A DNA stretch of 64,000 bases, from contig CP129469.1 of assembly GCA_030583665.1 (NCBI GenBank), positions 248,001 to 312,000 on the forward strand, read 5' to 3'. The stretch comes from Candidatus Jettenia sp. AMX2 (GTDB taxonomy: Bacteria > Planctomycetota > Brocadiia > Brocadiales > Brocadiaceae). Position 1 is the stretch's first letter. Every line of letters begins with the position of its first letter. A model generated the notes under the pieces. It did not search any database. It saw only the letters and a list, made by a program, of their open reading frames with translations, and was not told where the DNA came from. The translations under genes were made by a program, and so were the position numbers. Below are positions 7,254-59,264 of this stretch, piece by piece.

Positions 7254-9701
7254 TTAATGAAATCCTCCACCATGAGGAGCTCCGTATGACCTTCCATGCG
7301 GACTTCCATAAGGATTTTTTTCAGGAACCGGTTTAAGTGCCTCTAAAAGTGCTTTATCTGCCATTTCATCAACAATAGTAGTAAAGCCTTCTTCTGTTTT
7401 CATGAGTTTAGTAATTGTTTCGTTATCAATGACATGAATATAATCTGAGTTTTTACTCTTGGCATAGTACCCCTGTCCGTTTTTCTTTTTGCCAATAAGG
7501 AGTACAATATCACCGGTTTCCAAACCGGCTGTAATTGTGAGTTGGGGTTTGTCTAACGAAAATTGCGTTAAATCGGTTGGTTTATACTGTTCGATATAGC
7601 TGCTTTTCAACTCTGAAAGACTGCGAATATAATAATCGACCTCCTTTCCCTGGATATTCTTCTGGTCAGGAGCTTGTGTCTTCCAGTTCCAGACATTGTT
7701 TATCTTTTCTAACTGGATAGACCTATCAGAATAATCAAGGGTAAGGGTTACTACCTCTGACCTTTCAAAATCAAATATTTTGGTTGGTACCAATTCTGCA
7801 TCGAAATCCCTAACTTTGGGCCAGGGAAGCTCAAACACAAAATTGCTATCGTTAAACATAGCATAGAAATTTACCCTGTCACCTTCTTTGACGTTTTTAC
7901 CAATGAGTAAAGTTCTCGTTTCAGTGAGGGGTTCTTGAGGTTGCAGGGCAAGTTCTGACCCTGACGTGTTATCCTTCTTTTTGTTCTGTCCCTCGGGTAC
8001 ATCTGCTGCGTCCTTCTCATAAGTTACTGTCACTTTGATTGCCGGGTTATTTAATCCAAAACTTTCCAGGTCCTGCGGCGCTTCGGTAACGTATTTCTCT
8101 GCTTTTAAGAAGGACAGGTCCCATATAATTTGGTTAACCGTTTCAGCGTCAGCTATCGTTTGAACGGGGTTTGAGAGTTCCCATGCCATTTGTCCCTCAA
8201 TGTCCCTTTTGTTGGTTATCTTGCATACAAATGTGCGGTCAGGTTTTTCTATTACGATCTTTTTGGCTAAATCTTTATCAAAATCACACACAAGCCTGTC
8301 GCGGAAGGAAAGGAGTGTGGCTTCCAGTTTATCATAGAATTCTATCATAGGAACTGTATATACAGGTTCTTCCCCGACGCGTTTCACATAACATTTATTA
8401 CCTTCTGGCAGTTTTTTGCCAACGTAGAACTTGGCAAGTTCTCTGTCTTCTTCTTTTGTGACAGAAATCTCAAATACCGGTTCTTTTAATCCATACATTG
8501 CTAAATCAACTGGTTTATCTGAGATAAAATCCTCAATTTCCAGGGTCTTAATTTTCTCGATAAAATTCTTGACGGTATCCTGATCAGCATAAATATTAAT
8601 TGGCTTTGTGATTATCCAGTCAAGATCCAGGGATTTCTCAATAGTAATTACATCGGAAGCGGTCTTTATCTCCAGTTTATTTATACCATAGGTACCAATA
8701 GAATCAAATCTTACTACTTTTCTATCACGCAAGCCGTTTGGCTTCTTGCTTAAGTCTATGAGTATTGCATCCTTGAGGAGGAAAATGGTAGGCTCATCTG
8801 TTCGCTTTGCGTATACTTTGTTATCCAATGAATATCCAAAAACGACAGATTGGGTAATATCTTTTTCCTTGATTGTTACTGTGTAACGTGGCGTTTCTAA
8901 GCCATATTTAGCAAGGTTTTCCTCTTCTTCTTCCGGAAGAAAATCTGTACGTTCAATTTGAAGGTTTTTGAATTTACCTAACATATCCTTGATTTTTTCC
9001 AAATCCGCGAGGTCTTTAACAGGATCATCAATTCGCCAGAAAATTCCCTTTTTACTGCATACAATATTGAACTCATCTGTTTTAATCTGTAAACCGTCAA
9101 CAGCATCCTTGTCAAATGAAAATACCCATTTGCTTCTTAATTCAAGAATATGCTTATTGATCTTATCTTTAAGTGTTCCGGGTACCACAACAACCTCATC
9201 GTTCGTGTCGAGCTTAATGTATACATTATCACCCGCTGCAAGTTTTTGCCCTACAAATACGGTATATTTGTCTTTTGGCCCGGTTATTTGTATCTTGTCG
9301 CGCTTTGCCGGAATATTGGTATACATGGTGATAGAGACCTTTGGCGCATCCAGCCCATAATCTTCGAGATCAAAGGGCTTGCTTCCTTCCTGCTTAAATG
9401 CTCCTACTTTGTTCATGTATTCAAATTCAGAAAGTATGCTATTAATCTCTGAATTGTCAGCGCGGAGCCTTTTTGGTTCGACAATGTACCAGAAATTATT
9501 TTCGTCTTTTTCTAAAAAAATCCTGCCCCACTCGTTATTGAGTTCTATTTTTGTGACGAGTGATGCTTTAAAATCAGGGATGACCTTTTTTTGCAGCTTT
9601 TCCCATTCCTCATGAGGCATCTGTTCTTTTTCGTATAAAAAGACATACGAGATGCCGATAATTGCTACAAACAAAAGGATAATAGTTGTTTTAAGTTTCA
9701 T
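7254..9701 (-). CDS. DUF4340 repeat protein, membrane-anchored
   Basis: The 815-residue product has one N-terminal membrane helix (about 5-23) and is otherwise extracytoplasmic. It consists of about five DUF4340-type units of 130-160 residues. Each has a strand pattern ending in a motif of the type LEDYGLDAPKVSITM (also LAKYGLETP, LAMYGLKEP, LESFGLNNP, LTQFSLDKP), followed by a GKK...Y(A/V)K hairpin. The C-terminus is Gly/His rich (PHGRSYGAPHGGGFH). The start ATG 9701 has GGGAGG upstream. It is the last gene of an ABC-2/GldG operon, a common setting for this family. Molecular function is unknown; a role in envelope assembly or secretion is inferred from context. Confidence 0.85.
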   Translation of the reverse strand: MKLKTTIILLFVAIIGISYVFLYEKEQMPHEEWEKLQKKVIPDFKASLVTKIELNNEWGRIFLEKDENNFWYIVEPKRLRADNSEINSILSEFEYMNKVGAFKQEGSKPFDLEDYGLDAPKVSITMYTNIPAKRDKIQITGPKDKYTVFVGQKLAAGDNVYIKLDTNDEVVVVPGTLKDKINKHILELRSKWVFSFDKDAVDGLQIKTDEFNIVCSKKGIFWRIDDPVKDLADLEKIKDMLGKFKNLQIERTDFLPEEEEENLAKYGLETPRYTVTIKEKDITQSVVFGYSLDNKVYAKRTDEPTIFLLKDAILIDLSKKPNGLRDRKVVRFDSIGTYGINKLEIKTASDVITIEKSLDLDWIITKPINIYADQDTVKNFIEKIKTLEIEDFISDKPVDLAMYGLKEPVFEISVTKEEDRELAKFYVGKKLPEGNKCYVKRVGEEPVYTVPMIEFYDKLEATLLSFRDRLVCDFDKDLAKKIVIEKPDRTFVCKITNKRDIEGQMAWELSNPVQTIADAETVNQIIWDLSFLKAEKYVTEAPQDLESFGLNNPAIKVTVTYEKDAADVPEGQNKKKDNTSGSELALQPQEPLTETRTLLIGKNVKEGDRVNFYAMFNDSNFVFELPWPKVRDFDAELVPTKIFDFERSEVVTLTLDYSDRSIQLEKINNVWNWKTQAPDQKNIQGKEVDYYIRSLSELKSSYIEQYKPTDLTQFSLDKPQLTITAGLETGDIVLLIGKKKNGQGYYAKSKNSDYIHVIDNETITKLMKTEEGFTTIVDEMADKALLEALKPVPEKNPYGSPHGRSYGAPHGGGFH

Positions 9702-9794
9702 AACTTAATTCTTTCCTCCCACGTAGAGTACCATGAAATTGAAACAATCGAAAAGACACAGCCATTTGAATTCTTCATGAATAAAAAAATATAA

Positions 9795-11489
9795 TTACCG
9801 GCGTCTTCTCCACCAAACAATACTTCCGATAACGATTGGTATAATCGGAATGCCCGCGATTGATATCCAGAATATAACCTTCATCTGAAAGGGGTTAATC
9901 GTTGCTCTGCGGAAATCCGGTGCTTTTGCGGAGATGCCGAGCTGCGTTTCTTTTTTTGCCAGCCAGTTTACTGAATTACGAATTAAATCTGAATTACCCG
10001 GGTTTTCAATATACTCGTTTGTAGCAAAGTTTACATCTCCAAAAATAACTAGCCGGGCCCCCTGGGGTTGAGCTTTCGGATCGTTTGCAAATTCAGGATG
10101 AGATTGGGTAACGGTTTTTGGTAATTCCTTTACCTGAGAAACAACCGCAAGGGAAATAGGCCCTTGTAAATCAACATCACTGTTATTTTCAGGCTTTTTC
10201 GCTCTAATATTTTCAACATCCCTTTCGCCCCATGATTGCTCAGGTGCATGCATAAGTGTAGTAGCCTGATAGGGCATCTGATCGTTAGGAGGTGCTGCGC
10301 CAACACTACATGCGCCAAAAAATATTGTATTATAATTTTTCAGACTTTCGGTAATGATATGGTCTGAATATTCATCCTTACCCACGTAAATCTCTGCAAC
10401 TGTTTGAATACCGAAGAGAGGCATATTAACCTTGCTGTATACAACAACATCATCGTGTGCAACAATGCCATATTCTGCCAAAAGGGTTTTAAATCCTGTA
10501 GGGCTGTTTGGGGGGGCAGCAGGTTCGAGCATGAGGAGAAGTTTACCTCTGTTTTCAAGGTAGTTCTGGATAATATTTAATTCTTCTGTTAAATAGGCTT
10601 TTGTTGGCCCTGCGACTACCAACACATCACAGCTATCCGGAATTTTTCTGGTAGTCAGAATATCAAGAGGGGCTATATGGCAATTATCACGTTTAAGAGC
10701 ATTTGAGATTCCGGATATCCCGCCACGGTCATAATCCTCAAAGCTCCTTTCCCCATGTCCGGTAACAAAATAAATTGCAGTCCGCTTTTCCTGGGTGACA
10801 TTGAGAATTGCCTCTGTAAATGCTTCTTCTCCCTTAAATTTAAAAGGAAATTGCCTTTCTATGACCTCATTCTGTGGTACATGCTTGCTGTATTCCCCAC
10901 ATTCAAATACAACGGTGTTTAACTGAAGATCAGTCATGCCGAGACGTTTTCCCAATTCTTCTACTTTTGTTCTATTCCTTAGGGGATCGATATTTTCTAT
11001 CCTTATGTTATCTGAATGGTAAGCATATTCCTTTAGTATGTCCACGATTTGTTCGTAAAACATTTCCCCTGGATTATAAAGGGTAGTAATAACAACTGGT
11101 TTGTCGAGGTGCCTGAGTATGTTTTTTGTTTTTTCTGAGAGTGAATATTTACCGGTGAGGGTAAGGTCAAAACGTTCGTAGTGCCTGATATTTAAAAACC
11201 CGACGATCGCAAAGATGCATGCAGCAAAGATGGACATCATAGCAACGTTAGTTCCTACAAGCGCTTTTCTCTTGGATGCCTCCGTTGAAAACCATTTGTT
11301 TTGAACAGCAATGATCAACCCAGCACCTATCGCAACGGCTGCACCAATACCCGTAAGAATAAGGGAGGTTAATCCCCAGGCATTAAAGATTCTCGATATG
11401 CCAAAACCTGTTAATATGGCAATAATACCTGCCAATATGATATATCCACTTGATTTATCAAACCAACCATTCTTTTTTAAAATACTCAT
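9795..11489 (-). CDS. GldG-family ABC-associated membrane protein
   Basis: The 564-residue protein has two membrane helices near the N-terminus, a large extracytoplasmic GldG-like domain (about 110-520, with VYFVTGHGE-type motif and LLMLEP) and a C-terminal membrane helix followed by WWRRRR. The start ATG 11489 has AGGAG at 6 bp and overlaps the upstream stop as ATGA; a further ATG two codons upstream has its ribosome site too close. In Bacteroidetes GldG pairs with GldA and GldF for gliding and secretion; elsewhere such ABC-2 systems are uncharacterised. Here it sits between the permease and DUF4340 genes. Confidence 0.85.
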   Translation of the reverse strand: MSILKKNGWFDKSSGYIILAGIIAILTGFGISRIFNAWGLTSLILTGIGAAVAIGAGLIIAVQNKWFSTEASKRKALVGTNVAMMSIFAACIFAIVGFLNIRHYERFDLTLTGKYSLSEKTKNILRHLDKPVVITTLYNPGEMFYEQIVDILKEYAYHSDNIRIENIDPLRNRTKVEELGKRLGMTDLQLNTVVFECGEYSKHVPQNEVIERQFPFKFKGEEAFTEAILNVTQEKRTAIYFVTGHGERSFEDYDRGGISGISNALKRDNCHIAPLDILTTRKIPDSCDVLVVAGPTKAYLTEELNIIQNYLENRGKLLLMLEPAAPPNSPTGFKTLLAEYGIVAHDDVVVYSKVNMPLFGIQTVAEIYVGKDEYSDHIITESLKNYNTIFFGACSVGAAPPNDQMPYQATTLMHAPEQSWGERDVENIRAKKPENNSDVDLQGPISLAVVSQVKELPKTVTQSHPEFANDPKAQPQGARLVIFGDVNFATNEYIENPGNSDLIRNSVNWLAKKETQLGISAKAPDFRRATINPFQMKVIFWISIAGIPIIPIVIGSIVWWRRRR

Positions 11490-53013: not shown

Positions 53014-53221
53014 GGTGACATCGTAAAGACAATTACTTCTTACATATTCGTGTATTTGAAAGAGAAAATATTCATGGTATAATAATTTTAAGATGCTTCC
53101 GGTAATGTGCCTGAAAAAATAGCAAATCTATTCATTCCTTAAAGACATATTCCCGCAATATAAATTATGCAGAAAGTTACTTTGGAAAATACGGGGTTAT
53201 GTTCCTTTTGAGATAGTACCG

Positions 53222-53443
53222 GTGAGTGAAAAACCAAAACCTTCGATCCGATTAGTAATTGCCCGTTTCTTTTTTCTTATAGCAGTTTTACTGAATATAC
53301 TTTTACCGCTTTACTGGCAAGACACACCGGAGATCATTAAACATCTGCTGCTTGTCTTTAGCGCTATAATGTGCGTTCACATTATTGAATATGCATATCT
53401 TTGGTGGGAAATTCTTTTGAGATCCCCGAAGACCATTTCATGA
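53222..53443 (+). CDS. small two-helix membrane protein, unknown
   Basis: The 73-residue product starts at GTG 53222 and has two hydrophobic helices (about 10-30 and 40-62) with short charged ends. No strong ribosome site is seen and no family is recognised. The amino-acid composition is coherent for a membrane protein, so I keep it at moderate confidence. Confidence 0.45.
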   Translation: MSEKPKPSIRLVIARFFFLIAVLLNILLPLYWQDTPEIIKHLLLVFSAIMCVHIIEYAYLWWEILLRSPKTIS

Positions 53444-53560
53444 AACTATGGCTTACCTCAGACCTGGATTTATTCCATTTTTCATTTCCTATCGGCAGAA
53501 ATAATTCATATAATTATCAGCCTAGTGTATCGTTCTACAAATATGTTTACATATGTTATT

Positions 53561-53671
53561 GTCATTGCGAGCGACAGCGAAGCAATCTTAAGGCTTTATG
53601 AAATAAGAGATTGCGGAGCTTGTTCCGAGCCTGCTTAGAGATTGCTTCGTCGCTTCGCTCCTCGTAATGAC
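53561..53671. repeat. MITE/REP-like inverted repeat element
   Basis: The left end GTCATTGCGAGCGACAGCG and right end (reverse complement GTCATTACGAGGAGCGAAGC) form long imperfect terminal inverted repeats around a 50-bp centre. The GTCATTGCGAG...GAAGCAATC wording is a well-known interspersed intergenic repeat in many bacterial genomes. It lies in the 53444-53780 gap upstream of the Amt-kinase gene, which has no gene of its own. Confidence 0.75.
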
Positions 53672-53691
53672 GGACGAAAAATTTCAGCGAC

Positions 53692-53733
53692 CTTACAATG
53701 ACAGGCGAGGAATCTCCACTCCTTGCAATGACA
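53692..53733. repeat. degenerate partial copy of the same repeat
   Basis: TTACAATGACAGGCGAGGAA followed by CTCCACTCCTTGCAATGACA forms a second, shorter inverted pair directly after the first element and shares its CAATGAC ends. Confidence 0.55.
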
Positions 53734-53780
53734 TTCGTTTTTGTATAGGTTTTATGAAACGTTGTACTAGGTATCTATAG

Positions 53781-55814
53781 ATGGAAAACTTACAAATAAA
53801 TATCAATCATGTTTGGATTATGATGGCTGCATGCATGGTATTCTTCATGCAGTTTGGATTTATGTCTTTTGAAACAGGTTTTTCGCAATCCAAAAATGCC
53901 ATCAGCATTTCGATCAGAAACATAATAATAACTCTTGTATCAGCCCTTATCTATTATGTTTATGGATTCGGATTCATGTTTGGCAAGACTTATCTGGGCT
54001 GGATTGGGACAAGCCATTTTTATACGCACGGGGTGCATCCAACCGAACTTGATTACTCCTTTTTCTTTTTCCATTTAGTTTTTGCTGCAACGGCTGCCAC
54101 CATAATGACCGGCGCCCTGGCGGAACGTTCACGCACTTTTACAAACATTGCTGGCTGTCTCCTTATAACCTCAGTCATTTATCCCGTTTTCGGTCATTGG
54201 ACCTGGGGGCATCTCTTTCATCCGGAACAATCCGGCTGGCTGGGCAGGTTGGGATTTATTGATTTTGCAGGTTCCACTGTTGTTCACTCTGTTGGCGGGT
54301 GGTTTGCCCTGGCCGGGGCTTTGATGGTAGGACCAAGGGACGGGAAATATAATCCTGATGGTTCTTCAAATCCCATAGGGTTGCATAACATTCCCCTGGC
54401 AACATTGGGTACTTTTTTTTTGTGGTTCGGATGGTTCGGATTTAATGGTGGAAGTCTTTTATGGGTAAGTGCAGAGATTAGTCTCGTCATTAAAAACACC
54501 CACCTTGCCGCGGCATCGGCAGGCGTGTGTGCACTCGTAGTGAGTTATATCAGAGAAAACAAGATAAATGTGAGGAAACTTTTTACTGCAATCCTGGCCG
54601 GATTGGTCGCGATAACTGCTGGTTCAAACCTGGTACATCCCAACAGCGCTATTTATATAGGCATTATTGCCTCTCTAGCATCAATTTTCTCACAGGACCT
54701 TATTGAGAAAGTGTTAAAGATCGATGATCCCGTTGCCGCAGTTTCAGTTCATGGCGTTGGTGGCGCTGTAGGTACCCTCTGCGTTGCTCCGTTCGCCATG
54801 AAATCGGGTATGGAAGGAGTTGGCAGACTCTACCAACTCCTCGTTCAGGCATTGGGCGTAGGTATTGCTTTTATATGGGCATTTGGATTGGGAATACTCT
54901 TTTTCTGGTCTCTTAAAAAGACCACAGCTATTCGGGTAAGTCCGGAGGAAGAAAAAAGAGGCCTCAATGTTGCTGAGTACGAAGATGTCGCATCCTGGCT
55001 TGATTTCATACGAATAACAAGGCTTCAGGATTTGAATGTTTTATTGGAAAAGAGGATAGAGGAAAGGACAGAAGAACTCAGGAGGGCAAATATCGCTCTT
55101 GAAAAGGCCAACAGACTTAAATCTGAATTTCTGGCAACCATGTCGCATGAGCTTAGAACCCCGCTCAATGCTATTATTGGTTTTGCCGAGGTCTTAAAAG
55201 ATGAAGTGGTAGGCATGCTGAACAAAGAACAAAAAGAATACCTTGGTGACATTCATAGCAGCGGCCAGCACCTGCTCAATATGATAAACAGCATCCTGGA
55301 TCTCTCAAAGATTGAGGCGGGTAAGCTGGAACTCAAATATGAGACTTTCCACGTAAGAGAAACTATCAGTGAAGTGGTAAACACAATTGCGCCCTTTTCG
55401 CACAAGAAGGGTATAAGTATGAGAACCGCTATTCCCAAAGACCTTCCTCCTATAACTGCAGACAAGGTAAAATTTAAACAAATTCTGTTTAACCTGCTTT
55501 CTAATTCTGTTAAATTTACCCCGGATAATGGCAGGATTACCATAGCAGCAGCTCCTGAAAAACAGCATATCCGGTTTGATATATGTGATACAGGTATTGG
55601 CATTAAGCCCGGGGAAATAACCAAACTCTTCGAGCCTTTTCAACAATTAGATGCTTCTAGTGCCCGTCAATATGAAGGAACAGGTCTTGGACTGGCACTT
55701 ACAAAACGTCTGGTTGAATTACACGGTGGGAAAATATGGGTAAAGAGTGAATATGGTAAAGGAAGTACATTCTCCTTTTTGCTACCTATAAAACCAACTA
55801 AGGATCATCTCTAA
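53781..55814 (+). CDS. ammonium-sensor histidine kinase: Amt transporter domain fused to kinase (Ks-Amt5 type)
   Basis: The 677-residue fusion has an 11-helix Amt/Rh channel (about 1-390) joined by a short coiled coil ([20 protein letters not shown]) to HisKA with phospho-acceptor H456 ([12 protein letters not shown]) and an ATPase domain ([27 protein letters not shown]). In the Amt part both pore histidines are kept (STVVHSVGG and SVHGVGG), with ALAER and [11 protein letters not shown]. The same architecture was characterised as an ammonium sensor in Kuenenia stuttgartiensis. No receiver domain and no adjacent regulator gene; no glnK next to it. Confidence 0.94.
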
Positions 55815-56094: not shown

Positions 56095-56721
56095 TCAGGC
56101 CTTCCCCCACTTTTCATGATAAACAATTTCATCAAGAGGGAATCTGGGCCGCGGTGGAGGATCTTCCGCAGGGTAACCGACGGGAAGGATCGCAATGGCC
56201 TCTATGTTTTCAGGAATACCAAGAGCCTCTTTTATTTTGTTATCATCAAACCACCTTACCCAGCATGTTCCTAATCCTAATTCTACAGCCTGGAGAACCA
56301 TATGTTCAATGGCAATATCTGTATTGCCCGTAGCAGTAATGAGGAGATGCCATTTAATATCAGCGTTCATTTCTCCTCTTTTCAGTGAAGGGACAAAGAC
56401 CTCACGTGTTTTTGCAGGCAGGGCGCCAACAGCAATAAGTTCATCTATCCGTTCAGGGAATTCACTAAATGCCTTAATGTCAGCACAACAGACGATGACC
56501 ACCGGAGCTTGCCCGACATGACGCTGATTATATGAAGCTGATTGCAATTTCAGCCTTGTTTCTGCATCTTTTACCACAATAAACCTCCATGGTTGCGTAT
56601 TAGAACCCGATGGGGCAAGCCGTGCACTCTCCAGGAGCTGTACAAGTAACTCATCTGACACCGGATCAGGCTTAAATTTTCTGATACTACGCCGTTTACG
56701 AATTGCCTCTCTTACATCCAT
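56095..56721 (-). CDS. nitroreductase-family flavoprotein
   Basis: The 208-residue FMN-dependent enzyme has the family start VREAIRKRRSIRKFKPDPV, then LESARLAPSGSNTQPWRFIVV, a middle cap segment and GTCWVRWFDDNKIKEALGIP, and ends with AILPVGYPAEDPPPRPR. The substrate class (nitroaromatics, quinones or dehalogenation) cannot be told. Single gene; the 56722-57080 gap has only a repeat. Confidence 0.88.
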   Translation of the reverse strand: MDVREAIRKRRSIRKFKPDPVSDELLVQLLESARLAPSGSNTQPWRFIVVKDAETRLKLQSASYNQRHVGQAPVVIVCCADIKAFSEFPERIDELIAVGALPAKTREVFVPSLKRGEMNADIKWHLLITATGNTDIAIEHMVLQAVELGLGTCWVRWFDDNKIKEALGIPENIEAIAILPVGYPAEDPPPRPRFPLDEIVYHEKWGKA

Positions 56722-57080: not shown

Positions 57081-57617
57081 ATGTTAAACATCACAGTCAA
57101 TAAATCAATCTTAGAACTTGTCGTGGGCGATATTACAAAACAGGATACGGATGCCGTTGTAAATGCTGCAAATATAAGCCTGCTGGGTGGGGGCGGTGTA
57201 GACGGTGCAATCCATAAGGCAGGCGGGCCAAAAATACTTGATGAATGCAAGAAACTGGGTGGCTGCCCAACTGGAGAGGCTCGTATTACCACAGGAGGAG
57301 ATCTGAAGGCGCGGTATGTAATCCATACAGTAGGACCTGTTTATCATGATGGTAAAAGGCAGGAAGCAGAACTCCTGGCAAATGCTTATAAGAACAGCCT
57401 CAGGCTCGCCTCTCAATACAAACTCAGAAGTGTGGCCTTTCCGTCTATAAGCACAGGTGCTTATGGATATCCGGTTCATGAGGCTGCCAGGATTGCCTTA
57501 AAAACAGTAATAGATTATTTAAATGACCATACCGATGTCGAACTGGTGCGTTTTGTCCTTTTTAGCCAGAAACCATATCAGGAATACGAGAAAGCCCTGC
57601 GGGAACTCACAAAATAA
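57081..57617 (+). CDS. macrodomain ADP-ribose/O-acetyl-ADP-ribose hydrolase (YmdB/MacroD type)
   Basis: The 178-residue protein has all MacroD motifs: VGDITKQDTDAVVNAANISL, LLGGGGVDGAIHKAGG, GEARITTGGDL, YVIHTVGP and AFPSISTGAYGYP. It would remove ADP-ribose from proteins or deacetylate O-acetyl-ADP-ribose. It is unrelated in sequence class to the DarG-like macrodomain at 42960. The kinase gene follows after 81 bp. Confidence 0.92.
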   Translation: MLNITVNKSILELVVGDITKQDTDAVVNAANISLLGGGGVDGAIHKAGGPKILDECKKLGGCPTGEARITTGGDLKARYVIHTVGPVYHDGKRQEAELLANAYKNSLRLASQYKLRSVAFPSISTGAYGYPVHEAARIALKTVIDYLNDHTDVELVRFVLFSQKPYQEYEKALRELTK

Positions 57618-57698
57618 AACGAATTCAGGTGTTTTTATGATGGCCGTTGTTGGGCATTGTAAAAAATTATTCCTTGTTTGGAAAAACTACTGGAAAAT

Positions 57699-59264
57699 AT
57701 GTTTTTTAATAAAAAAGAAATAATCCTCAATATCAATAAAATTATCTTTTCAAGTCTGGACATCCGTGATGTCTACCAGACCATGAGCAGGGAACTTTTA
57801 AAGGTAATTGACTTTGACAGGCTCAGCGTTACCCATATCACCGAAGATAATAATTTATACGAAACCTTTGTGTTATCAAAAGATTACGAATATACCGACC
57901 TGAAAGAAGGTGTCTTTTACCCTATGGAAGGAAGCCTCATGAAAAGAGTGGTTCAGTTCCGTGAGCCGGTCATTGTCGAAGATACATCAAAAGGCCGATT
58001 CCTCACCGATGCCATACTCTATAAAGAAGGTATTTGTTCAAGGTTGGGGTTTCCGCTTAAGTATAAAGAACAGGTAATAGGTAGTGTAAATTTTGGAAGT
58101 AAACGGAAAAACTATTATTCAAAAAAACATATTGATTTTCTCTTAAAAATAGCCCCTCAGCTTGCTATGGCAATTGAAAATACAAGGCTTTTTAACAAGA
58201 TTAAGGAAGCAGAAAAAAAGTACAGAACGGTTATCGAGAATTCCCCAGACATCATCTTTGAATGTTCAAAAAAGGGAGAATTCTCCTTAATGAGTCCTTC
58301 GGTAGAAAAGATTACCGGCTATCCGTTAAATCGGTTTTATAACAATCGCGGATATGGACTCTCACTCTGTCATCCTGATGATAAGGAAAGAGTACTGTCT
58401 GAAATACAAGGGGTATTGAGTGGAACAACCGGTAGTTTACTCAATCTGGAGTTTCGTATCATTCACAAACAAGGGCAGGTTGCGTGGCTTTCTCTTGAGG
58501 TGCTTCCTATCATTCAGGAAAATACCATCGTTGGTATTGAAGGTTTTTGCCGTGATATCACGGAAAGAAAAAGATTAGACGAATTGAAAGACAACCTTAT
58601 TCGTGATGTTACTCATGAATTAAAAACCCCGGTCGCCAAAATAGAAATGGCCCTGGATATGTTTCGCCGTTCCCTTTTGTCAGGAAACAAAAGCATTCCG
58701 GGGAGGGAATGCCAGATTGATGATATCCTGAAAAACAACATTAACCGTTTAAAAAATGCAATTAAAAATATATTAGACATATCCAAGCTGGAGGCCGGAA
58801 TGGAACCACTACGCCTCTCTGATATTTCTCTTGCAGAATTATCAAAAATAATCGTCAATGAGTTAGGGAAAGAGGCGGAGAAAAAAGGGAATATCTTTAC
58901 CTGCGAGATACCTTCTGATATTCCTGCAATAAGAGCAGACCGTGAGAAGATACATCATCTGATGTTTCACCTTGCTGATAATGCCATAAAGTTCACAGAA
59001 AAAGGAAAGATTCGTATATCGGCAAGGCAAATTCCCCATGGGGTAGAGCTAACGGTTGAAGACACAGGCAAGGGCCTGGAAGGGGGAATACGGGAACGTA
59101 TATTCGATAAGTTTTATAAAGAAGCCCCTTCCATGTATGGATCAGGTATAGGTCTTGCCATTTGCAAAAATATTGTACAGATTCACAAAGGAAAGATCTG
59201 GGCCGAATCGGAAGGAAAAGGCAAAGGTACCCGGTTTAAGGTTGTTCTCCCAATTAATGGATAA
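57699..59264 (+). CDS. cytoplasmic GAF-PAS sensor histidine kinase
   Basis: The 521-residue kinase (ATG 57699 with GGAAA upstream; TTG 57678 also possible) has no membrane helix. GAF is at about 10-165, PAS at about 170-295, HisKA with H306 (VTHELKTPVAK), and the ATPase at about 400-520 (FHLADNAIKF, DTGKGLEGG, GSGIGLAICKN). Its GAF resembles that of the kinase at 23466 (INKxIxSSLDxxxVYxxM and QLAxAIENxRLF), pointing to a paralogous origin. No regulator is adjacent. Confidence 0.92.
   Translation: MFFNKKEIILNINKIIFSSLDIRDVYQTMSRELLKVIDFDRLSVTHITEDNNLYETFVLSKDYEYTDLKEGVFYPMEGSLMKRVVQFREPVIVEDTSKGRFLTDAILYKEGICSRLGFPLKYKEQVIGSVNFGSKRKNYYSKKHIDFLLKIAPQLAMAIENTRLFNKIKEAEKKYRTVIENSPDIIFECSKKGEFSLMSPSVEKITGYPLNRFYNNRGYGLSLCHPDDKERVLSEIQGVLSGTTGSLLNLEFRIIHKQGQVAWLSLEVLPIIQENTIVGIEGFCRDITERKRLDELKDNLIRDVTHELKTPVAKIEMALDMFRRSLLSGNKSIPGRECQIDDILKNNINRLKNAIKNILDISKLEAGMEPLRLSDISLAELSKIIVNELGKEAEKKGNIFTCEIPSDIPAIRADREKIHHLMFHLADNAIKFTEKGKIRISARQIPHGVELTVEDTGKGLEGGIRERIFDKFYKEAPSMYGSGIGLAICKNIVQIHKGKIWAESEGKGKGTRFKVVLPING

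What the first reader, a model, noticed from the sequence alone, without database searches (positions are those of the whole stretch)
53781..55814. Ammonium channel fused to a histidine kinase, with pore histidines retained
This is the Ks-Amt5 type of ammonium sensor, reported from an anammox organism that feeds on ammonium. Both pore histidines appear present, and the kinase joins the channel through a short coiled coil with no PAS, HAMP or receiver domain. No response regulator lies next to it, so the output path is open. The gene is preceded by two interspersed repeats and has no glnK neighbour.
Basis: partly seen in the sequence, partly recalled or inferred. Interest (0 to 1): 0.7.

Follow-up and report, generated by a model that had tools for sequence, protein, structure and literature searches.

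The report
Ammonium sensor kinase, with likely partner
This anammox bacterium carries the known type of ammonium sensor in which an ammonium channel is fused to a signalling kinase, and comparison of genomes points to the long-missing protein it passes its signal to, one apparently shared with a kinase that looks like a nitric-oxide sensor.

Summary
ORF 53781-55814 (677 aa) is an orthologue of Ks-Amt5: 66% identity over the solved Amt domain, the same architecture, both pore histidines (H169, H324), the Phe gate and the filter. Orthologues lie in 29 of 33 family genomes, so the gene itself is a new member of a known kind.

(1) The two-ammonium site that defines Ks-Amt5 is only partly kept. Its second acid, D50, is I50 here and V/L/E in most anammox orthologues. 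Q24, E31, N47 and T109 never vary, and most of this motif also occurs in unfused Amts.

(2) The output path, unidentified in the Ks-Amt5 paper, gains a candidate. In two Ca. Anammoxibacter genomes the Amt-kinase gene is followed within 15 bp by a single-domain response regulator. Its reciprocal best hit in this genome (G000:C1:3112567-3112947) lies beside a hybrid kinase, the only one of 23 comparable kinases to share the window kinase's partner-specificity residues (AGVDS, 5/5; others at most 1/5). That kinase carries a c-haem sCache (Tll0287) sensor of the type recently reported to bind NO. So ammonium and NO, the two hydrazine-synthase substrates, may converge on one regulator. This is inferred from sequence; no phosphotransfer was tested.

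The parts
53781..55814 (+). amt-HK gene, 677 aa, orthologue of Ks-Amt5 (kust_3690 / KSMBR1_3866)
   Evidence: start codon supported by the conserved N-terminus M-E-N-[IL]-Q
53811..54992 (+). Amt sensor domain (residues 11-404)
   Evidence: Pfam PF00909; Foldseek top hit 6EU6
53871..53873 (+). E31, acidic ligand of the intramembrane cation site; invariant in all Amt-HKs checked that cover it
53928..53930 (+). I50, where Ks-Amt5 has D50, the second acidic ligand of its two-ammonium site
   Evidence: site defined in PMC5764959
54285..54287 (+). H169, first pore histidine (Ks H171)
54750..54752 (+). H324, second pore histidine (Ks H326)
54993..55118 (+). linker (residues 405-446), part of a predicted continuous helix 406-475; distance from GLN394 to the phospho-His exactly 62 residues in all 15 orthologues measured
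   Evidence: this region has pLDDT 40-56
55119..55322 (+). DHp domain (447-514) with phospho-acceptor H456 (55146-55148) and specificity residues A464, G467, V471, D490, S493
55461..55793 (+). catalytic ATP-binding domain (561-671), N-box [12 protein letters not shown]1 DTGIGI, G2 GTGLGL
53522..53770 (.). MITE-like interspersed repeat of 249 bp ending 10 bp before the start codon; long copies at G000:C1:2634055, 2553525, 871987, 2008043
53192..53550 (+). degraded remnant (start and a later piece, internal deletion) of the 460-524 aa gene without Pfam match that directly precedes amt-HK in several anammox genomes
56095..56721 (-). nitroreductase-family gene, first gene of the conserved downstream block
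   Evidence: below curated cut-offs for named equivalogs
57081..57617 (+). macro-domain (ADP-ribose) gene of the conserved downstream block
57678..59264 (+). GAF-PAS histidine kinase of the conserved block; in five relatives followed by a 122-aa receiver that is missing here and found at G000:C1:2845062-2845430; its specificity residues (KMMIN) share none with Amt-HK

Best explanation
The gene encodes a trimeric, membrane-bound ammonium sensor kinase of the Ks-Amt5 type. NH4+ enters the vestibule of the Amt domain through the W142/S225 filter, is held in an intramembrane site built round Q24, E31, N47 and T107 (probably one cation rather than the two seen in Ks-Amt5, because D50 is I50), and the conformational change passes through a helix of fixed length (62 residues from GLN394 to H456) to the kinase, changing phosphorylation of H456. 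The phosphate then goes to the receiver(s) of a separate operon at G000:C1:3.112 Mb, most likely the 126-aa single-domain regulator (3112567-3112947), possibly also the neighbouring receiver-PAS protein (3111694-3112410). The same operon encodes a c-haem sCache hybrid kinase with the same specificity residues, so two sensors feed one output. Shown here: gene, architecture, residue states, distribution, gene order, reciprocal best hits, specificity-residue match. Shown for Ks-Amt5 by others: NH4+-modulated autophosphorylation, lack of transport, trimer. Inferred: ligand number in this protein, phosphotransfer partner, integration of two signals.
For: Orthology. Pore and site residues. Fixed linker length. 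Partner: in both Ca. Anammoxibacter genomes the Amt-HK stop is 3-15 bp before a 126-129 aa receiver. Reciprocal best hits: own regulator to G002 150 bits against 102 for the next, to G001 119 against about 90; profile of the two Anammoxibacter regulators to the own genome 163 bits against 106 for the next. The own regulator directly follows the hybrid kinase whose kinase core is the closest own paralogue (59%; next 45%; DHp 77% against 53%). At the five positions rewired in HK853 (A268, A271, T275, V294, D297; titles, gapless mapping) window = AGVDS, hybrid kinase = AGVDS, every other own kinase at most 1 of 5; Anammoxibacter Amt-HKs AGVDG. Regulator side: own KNLI, Anammoxibacter KNLV/RNLI. 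The hybrid-kinase/regulator/receiver-PAS operon is conserved in all 7 other genera-spanning loci inspected except that Kuenenia's regulator was located. 31 of 32 family genomes have the regulator and 29 of 33 have Amt-HK.
Against: No phosphotransfer data. The AGVDS set belongs to a common kinase class, so sharing it may reflect recent paralogy rather than shared partner; other AGVDS kinases exist in Brocadia and Kuenenia next to other receivers. G025, G034, G043 and G055 have the regulator but no full-length Amt-HK, as expected if the hybrid kinase is its main input. One acidic ligand is lost, so affinity may differ or sensing may be weakened; the Amt domain has the longest end branch of the Amt-HK clade (0.34). 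The full-length model is of low confidence in the N-terminal half and linker.
Confidence: 0.62

Rival explanations
1. The partner is the 122-aa receiver that in relatives lies four genes downstream, after the GAF-PAS kinase, and here sits alone at G000:C1:2845062-2845430.
For: Present in the conserved block with Amt-HK in L100, L103, L104, L106 and L108; an 86% identical copy without a kinase beside it here.
Against: It directly follows the GAF-PAS kinase, whose specificity residues (KMMIN) are unlike AGVDS; its own specificity residues (EMFM) are unlike those of the regulators next to Amt-HK in Anammoxibacter, identity to them 18%.
Confidence: 0.12
2. The protein is a degenerate or altered sensor: with D50 lost, a repeat element 10 bp before the start codon and the upstream partner gene broken, it no longer senses ammonium as Ks-Amt5 does.
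For: I50, F30, long end branch, repeat and remnant. One relative (G014) has the gene broken by stop codons.
Against: The reading frame and all kinase boxes are intact. Hydrophobic residues at position 50 are the rule in Brocadia, Jettenia and Loosdrechtia, whose genes are conserved, so loss of D50 does not by itself mean loss of function. Aromatic character at position 30 is kept.
Confidence: 0.15
3. The Amt domain is a real ammonium channel that also signals (a transceptor).
For: All transport motifs, including the His pair, are kept.
Against: Ks-Amt5 has the same motifs and binds but does not efficiently translocate NH4+; its bulky F27/Y30/F34 plug the pore (PMC5764959). The window has F27, F30, F34.
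Confidence: 0.1

Closest known systems
Ks-Amt5 (kust_3690 / KSMBR1_3866, PDB 6EU6), Ca. Kuenenia stuttgartiensis
   Same: Full-length homology, same domain order and length, same pore, gate and filter residues, long loop 5, no PAS/HAMP, no glnK neighbour.
   Different: Y30 is F30 and D50 is I50 (one of the two acids of the two-ammonium site); different gene neighbourhood; repeat element directly upstream.
Sd-Amt1 (PDB 8QJ3, 8QJ4, 8QPF), Shewanella denitrificans Amt receptor
   Same: Amt domain used as a receptor; 40-42% identity over the Amt domain; keeps E31, N47 and D50 (alignment).
   Different: Different output part: its match to the window protein ends at residue 413, before the kinase.
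Kinase-less Amt with coiled-coil tail (KSMBR1_3722 type, L096, L156, L159, L160)
   Same: 49-54% identity over Amt and the start of the linker.
   Different: No kinase by Pfam; encoded next to a c-haem sCache PAS-GAF kinase and a sigma-54 type regulator.
HK853/RR468 and DivK-like single-domain receivers
   Same: Kinase core aligns to HK853 without a gap in the DHp region; candidate regulator is a lone receiver.
   Different: No functional link; HK853 is used here only as a yardstick for specificity positions.

Membership tests
Ks-Amt5-type ammonium sensor kinase | Amt domain directly followed by HisKA + HATPase_c, no PAS/HAMP | tested here: met
Ks-Amt5-type ammonium sensor kinase | His pair, Phe gate and W/S filter retained | tested here: met
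   H169, H324, F101, F221, W142, S225
Ks-Amt5-type ammonium sensor kinase | bulky plug residues F27, Y30, F34 | tested here: met
   F27, F30, F34: aromatic at all three, Y30 to F30
Ks-Amt5-type ammonium sensor kinase | two-ammonium intramembrane site Q24, E31, N47, D50, T51, T109, T112 | tested here: inconclusive
   six of seven kept, D50 is I50; most orthologues also lack D50 while Q24, E31, N47, T109 are invariant, so D50 is not a defining residue of the orthologous group
Ks-Amt5-type ammonium sensor kinase | elongated loop 5 | tested here: met
   gapless alignment with 6EU6 across Ks residues 186-205
Ks-Amt5-type ammonium sensor kinase | autophosphorylation changed by NH4+, no efficient transport, trimer | not testable with these tools
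   shown for Ks-Amt5 only (PMC5764959)
Cognate regulator of Amt-HK = 126-aa receiver at G000:C1:3112567-3112947 | orthologous to a regulator gene adjacent to Amt-HK in relatives | tested here: met
   two Anammoxibacter genomes, reciprocal best hits
Cognate regulator of Amt-HK = 126-aa receiver at G000:C1:3112567-3112947 | its kinase neighbour shares specificity residues with Amt-HK | tested here: met
   AGVDS/AGVDS, others at most 1 of 5
Cognate regulator of Amt-HK = 126-aa receiver at G000:C1:3112567-3112947 | direct and preferred phosphotransfer | not testable with these tools
   needs protein
NO-type sCache_haem sensor (hybrid kinase beside the candidate regulator) | Tll0287 domain with CXXCH, fused to HAMP/kinase, no axial Cys | tested here: met
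   PF11845 E 5e-32, HAMP; CLLCH and no other Cys in the sensor part; class described in PMC12889525
NO-type sCache_haem sensor (hybrid kinase beside the candidate regulator) | tight NO binding | not testable with these tools
   measured only for a Pseudomonas azotoformans domain (preprint PMC12889525)

The most novel reading that the evidence does not exclude
In anammox bacteria the ammonium sensor kinase and a c-haem, probably NO-sensing, hybrid kinase phosphorylate the same single-domain response regulator, so the cell reads both substrates of hydrazine synthase (NH4+ and NO) through one node. A second, separate operon type pairs a kinase-less Amt with another c-haem sCache kinase, the same two inputs again.
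Probability: 0.33. Interest if true: 0.8.

Novelty: new member of a known kind. Interest (0 to 1): 0.52.

Why it matters
The Ks-Amt5 paper left the response regulator unidentified (PMC5764959), and a 2026 paper still calls it unidentified (PMC12918730); in the open-access library searched here no later identification was found. A named candidate, present in nearly all Brocadiaceae genomes, makes that question a one-day phosphotransfer experiment. If the shared-node reading holds, it would show how anammox cells weigh ammonium against nitric oxide, the two substrates of the reaction that defines them. The residue survey also says that the two-ammonium site seen in the crystal is peculiar to Kuenenia-like and Anammoxibacter proteins at D50, and that the conserved core is Q24/E31/N47/T109, which changes which mutants should be tested.

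Tried and rejected
Amt-PAS-PAS-HK(-REC-REC) hybrids of another Brocadiales family (L151, L154, L167) followed by a single-domain receiver looked at first like the same circuit; rejected because their DHp code is TSGYL and their receivers are closer to other own regulators. AlphaFold without alignment gave pLDDT 38 (unusable); with 18 orthologues 61, kinase core good, Amt N-terminal half and linker poor, so used only for fold search and not for the binding site. Promoter scan of the upstream region gave no more sites than shuffles. E31/N47/D50 as a marker of sensors was rejected: unfused 405-416 aa Amts carry the same motif. Literature search for a later regulator assignment found none in the open-access library.

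Full report
WHAT IS THERE. The window is part of a complete 3.46-Mb genome of an anammox bacterium: it has two hydrazine-synthase alpha genes, and its nearest genome, in the same genus, matches the contig of Ca. Loosdrechtia aerotolerans. ORF 53781-55814 encodes 677 residues: Ammonium_transp 11-404, HisKA 447-514, HATPase_c 561-671, nothing else. The closest solved protein is Ks-Amt5 (6EU6; also first in a fold search with the AlphaFold model). The genome has four other Amt genes, three in one cluster with both P-II genes; the window gene has neither P-II nor a regulator beside it.

RESIDUES. Against the numbering of the Ks-Amt5 paper (PMC5764959) the His pair, Phe gate and filter are all kept, as they are in the other Amts examined, transporters included; so they are not a test of sensing. 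The proposed sensing site is the intramembrane pocket Q24, E31, N47, D50, T51, T109, T112. In the window protein all are kept except D50, which is I50. Across about 30 orthologues Q24, E31, N47 and T109 are invariant wherever the sequence covers them; D50 is kept in Kuenenia-like proteins and in Ca. Anammoxibacter, replaced by E in one well-supported clade (one origin, 98/92), and by V, I or L in Brocadia, Jettenia and Loosdrechtia. The exchange removes one of the two acids that balance two cations, so a one-cation site is the simplest expectation for this protein (inference). E31/N47/D50 also occur in unfused Amts of about 405-416 aa, so the motif as such does not mark a sensor. What does set the Amt-HK group apart is an aromatic residue at position 30 (Y, here F), where these unfused relatives have V or L.

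LINKER. From GLN394 to the phospho-acceptor H456 there are exactly 62 residues in the window and in all 14 further orthologues measured, while the protein ends vary. The helix predicted from 406 to 475 is continuous (low confidence in its first half). A fixed register is what a rigid signalling helix would require; this is inference.

DISTRIBUTION. A full-length or near full-length Amt-HK is found in 29 of 33 genomes of the family, one of them interrupted by stop codons and one cut by a contig end, in two Ca. Anammoxibacter genomes and in one Scalindua-labelled genome. In 392 genomes drawn from the phylum nothing outside the order passed E 1e-120.

THE MISSING PARTNER. The Ks-Amt5 paper speaks of a 'yet to be identified' response regulator, and a 2026 paper still does. 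Four lines of evidence point to one candidate. First, in both Ca. Anammoxibacter genomes the Amt-HK gene is followed within 3-15 bp by a 126-129 aa single receiver. Second, that receiver and the own protein at G000:C1:3112567-3112947 are reciprocal best hits. Third, the own receiver directly follows a hybrid kinase (3112972-3115383) whose kinase core is the nearest own paralogue of Amt-HK, 59% against 45% for the next. Fourth, at the five positions by which HK853 was rewired (PDB titles 4jas/4jau; gapless mapping shown) the window kinase and the hybrid kinase are identical (AGVDS), the Anammoxibacter Amt-HKs differ at one (AGVDG), and the other own kinases share at most one letter. Among 276 own kinase pairs only six share four or five letters, all of them close paralogues by sequence or neighbouring genes. 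That last point is also the main caveat: close paralogues may share letters by descent, and paralogy alone does not prove a shared partner. The operon GH15 - hybrid kinase - receiver - receiver-PAS recurs in Loosdrechtia, Brocadia, Jettenia, Kuenenia and other genomes, with some gaps in the GH15 member.

THE SECOND INPUT. The hybrid kinase begins with a Tll0287-like domain (E 5e-32) and HAMP, with a CLLCH haem motif and no other cysteine in the sensor part in all eight orthologues examined. A 2026 preprint (PMC12889525) renames the domain sCache_haem and reports that a kinase-type member lacking the axial cysteine binds NO like an NO sensor and does not form a stable oxygen complex. NO and ammonium are the substrates of hydrazine synthase (established knowledge; PMC5764959 describes the pathway). 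Hence the most interesting reading: both substrates report to one regulator. Independently, a kinase-less Amt paralogue is encoded directly before a different Tll0287-containing or CxxCH-bearing kinase of about 1060 aa in all six loci where the next gene is held, with a sigma-54-type regulator further on in those that extend far enough (the domain itself was confirmed by Pfam only in L096).

NEIGHBOURHOOD. In five relatives Amt-HK heads a block: nitroreductase, macro domain, GAF-PAS kinase, 122-aa receiver. The window keeps the first four and lacks the receiver, whose 86% identical copy stands at 2.845 Mb without a kinase beside it. Its specificity letters and those of the GAF-PAS kinase are unlike those of Amt-HK, so it is a weaker candidate. 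Upstream, a gene without Pfam match that lies directly before amt-HK in several genomes is reduced here to a remnant, and a 249-bp repeat with many copies ends 10 bp before the start codon. Whether this alters expression is unknown.

VERDICT. The protein is a new member of a known kind. The value lies in the revised binding-site core and in a concrete, testable output path. No step of the signalling was measured here.

Noticed in passing
L096:6807-8426 (G032:C1, KSMBR1_3722 type); also L153, L156, L157, L159, L160: An Amt paralogue listed in the literature as a second Amt-HK of K. stuttgartiensis has no kinase domain by Pfam: Amt plus coiled-coil tail, followed directly by a c-haem (CxxCH) kinase of about 1060 aa (Tll0287-HAMP-PAS-GAF-HK in L096) and, where held, a sigma-54 type regulator.
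   Followed up: partly
G000:C1 ends (8099-10517 and 3454823-3457241): The same kinase and regulator genes appear at both contig ends with a constant offset of 3446724 bases, so the assembly seems to have overlapping, untrimmed ends of about 13 kb.
   Followed up: no
G000:C1:383159 and 1143185: Two copies of the hydrazine synthase alpha gene with identical scores.
   Followed up: no
L151, L154, L167 (another Brocadiales family): Amt-PAS-PAS-HK fusions, one with two receivers, followed by a single receiver and a receiver fused to what looks like a RecA/KaiC-type ATPase; a different kinase class (TSGYL).
   Followed up: partly
L099:6161-7783 (G017) and similar genes in G015, G016, G018, G020: A soluble 540-547 aa kinase whose kinase core is 65-69% identical to that of Amt-HK, with an N-terminal part that Pfam does not recognise.
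   Followed up: no
window 53522-53770: MITE-like 249-bp repeat with CTAG at both ends and imperfect terminal inverted repeats; full and internally deleted copies across the genome.
   Followed up: partly
L097:9562-13086 and L220:9083-12001: In Kuenenia a further kinase and receivers (150 aa and larger) lie beside the hybrid-kinase operon.
   Followed up: no
G014:C20:25088-27113: Amt-HK gene of one Brocadia-group genome is interrupted by stop codons in both halves, either a pseudogene or an assembly error.
   Followed up: no
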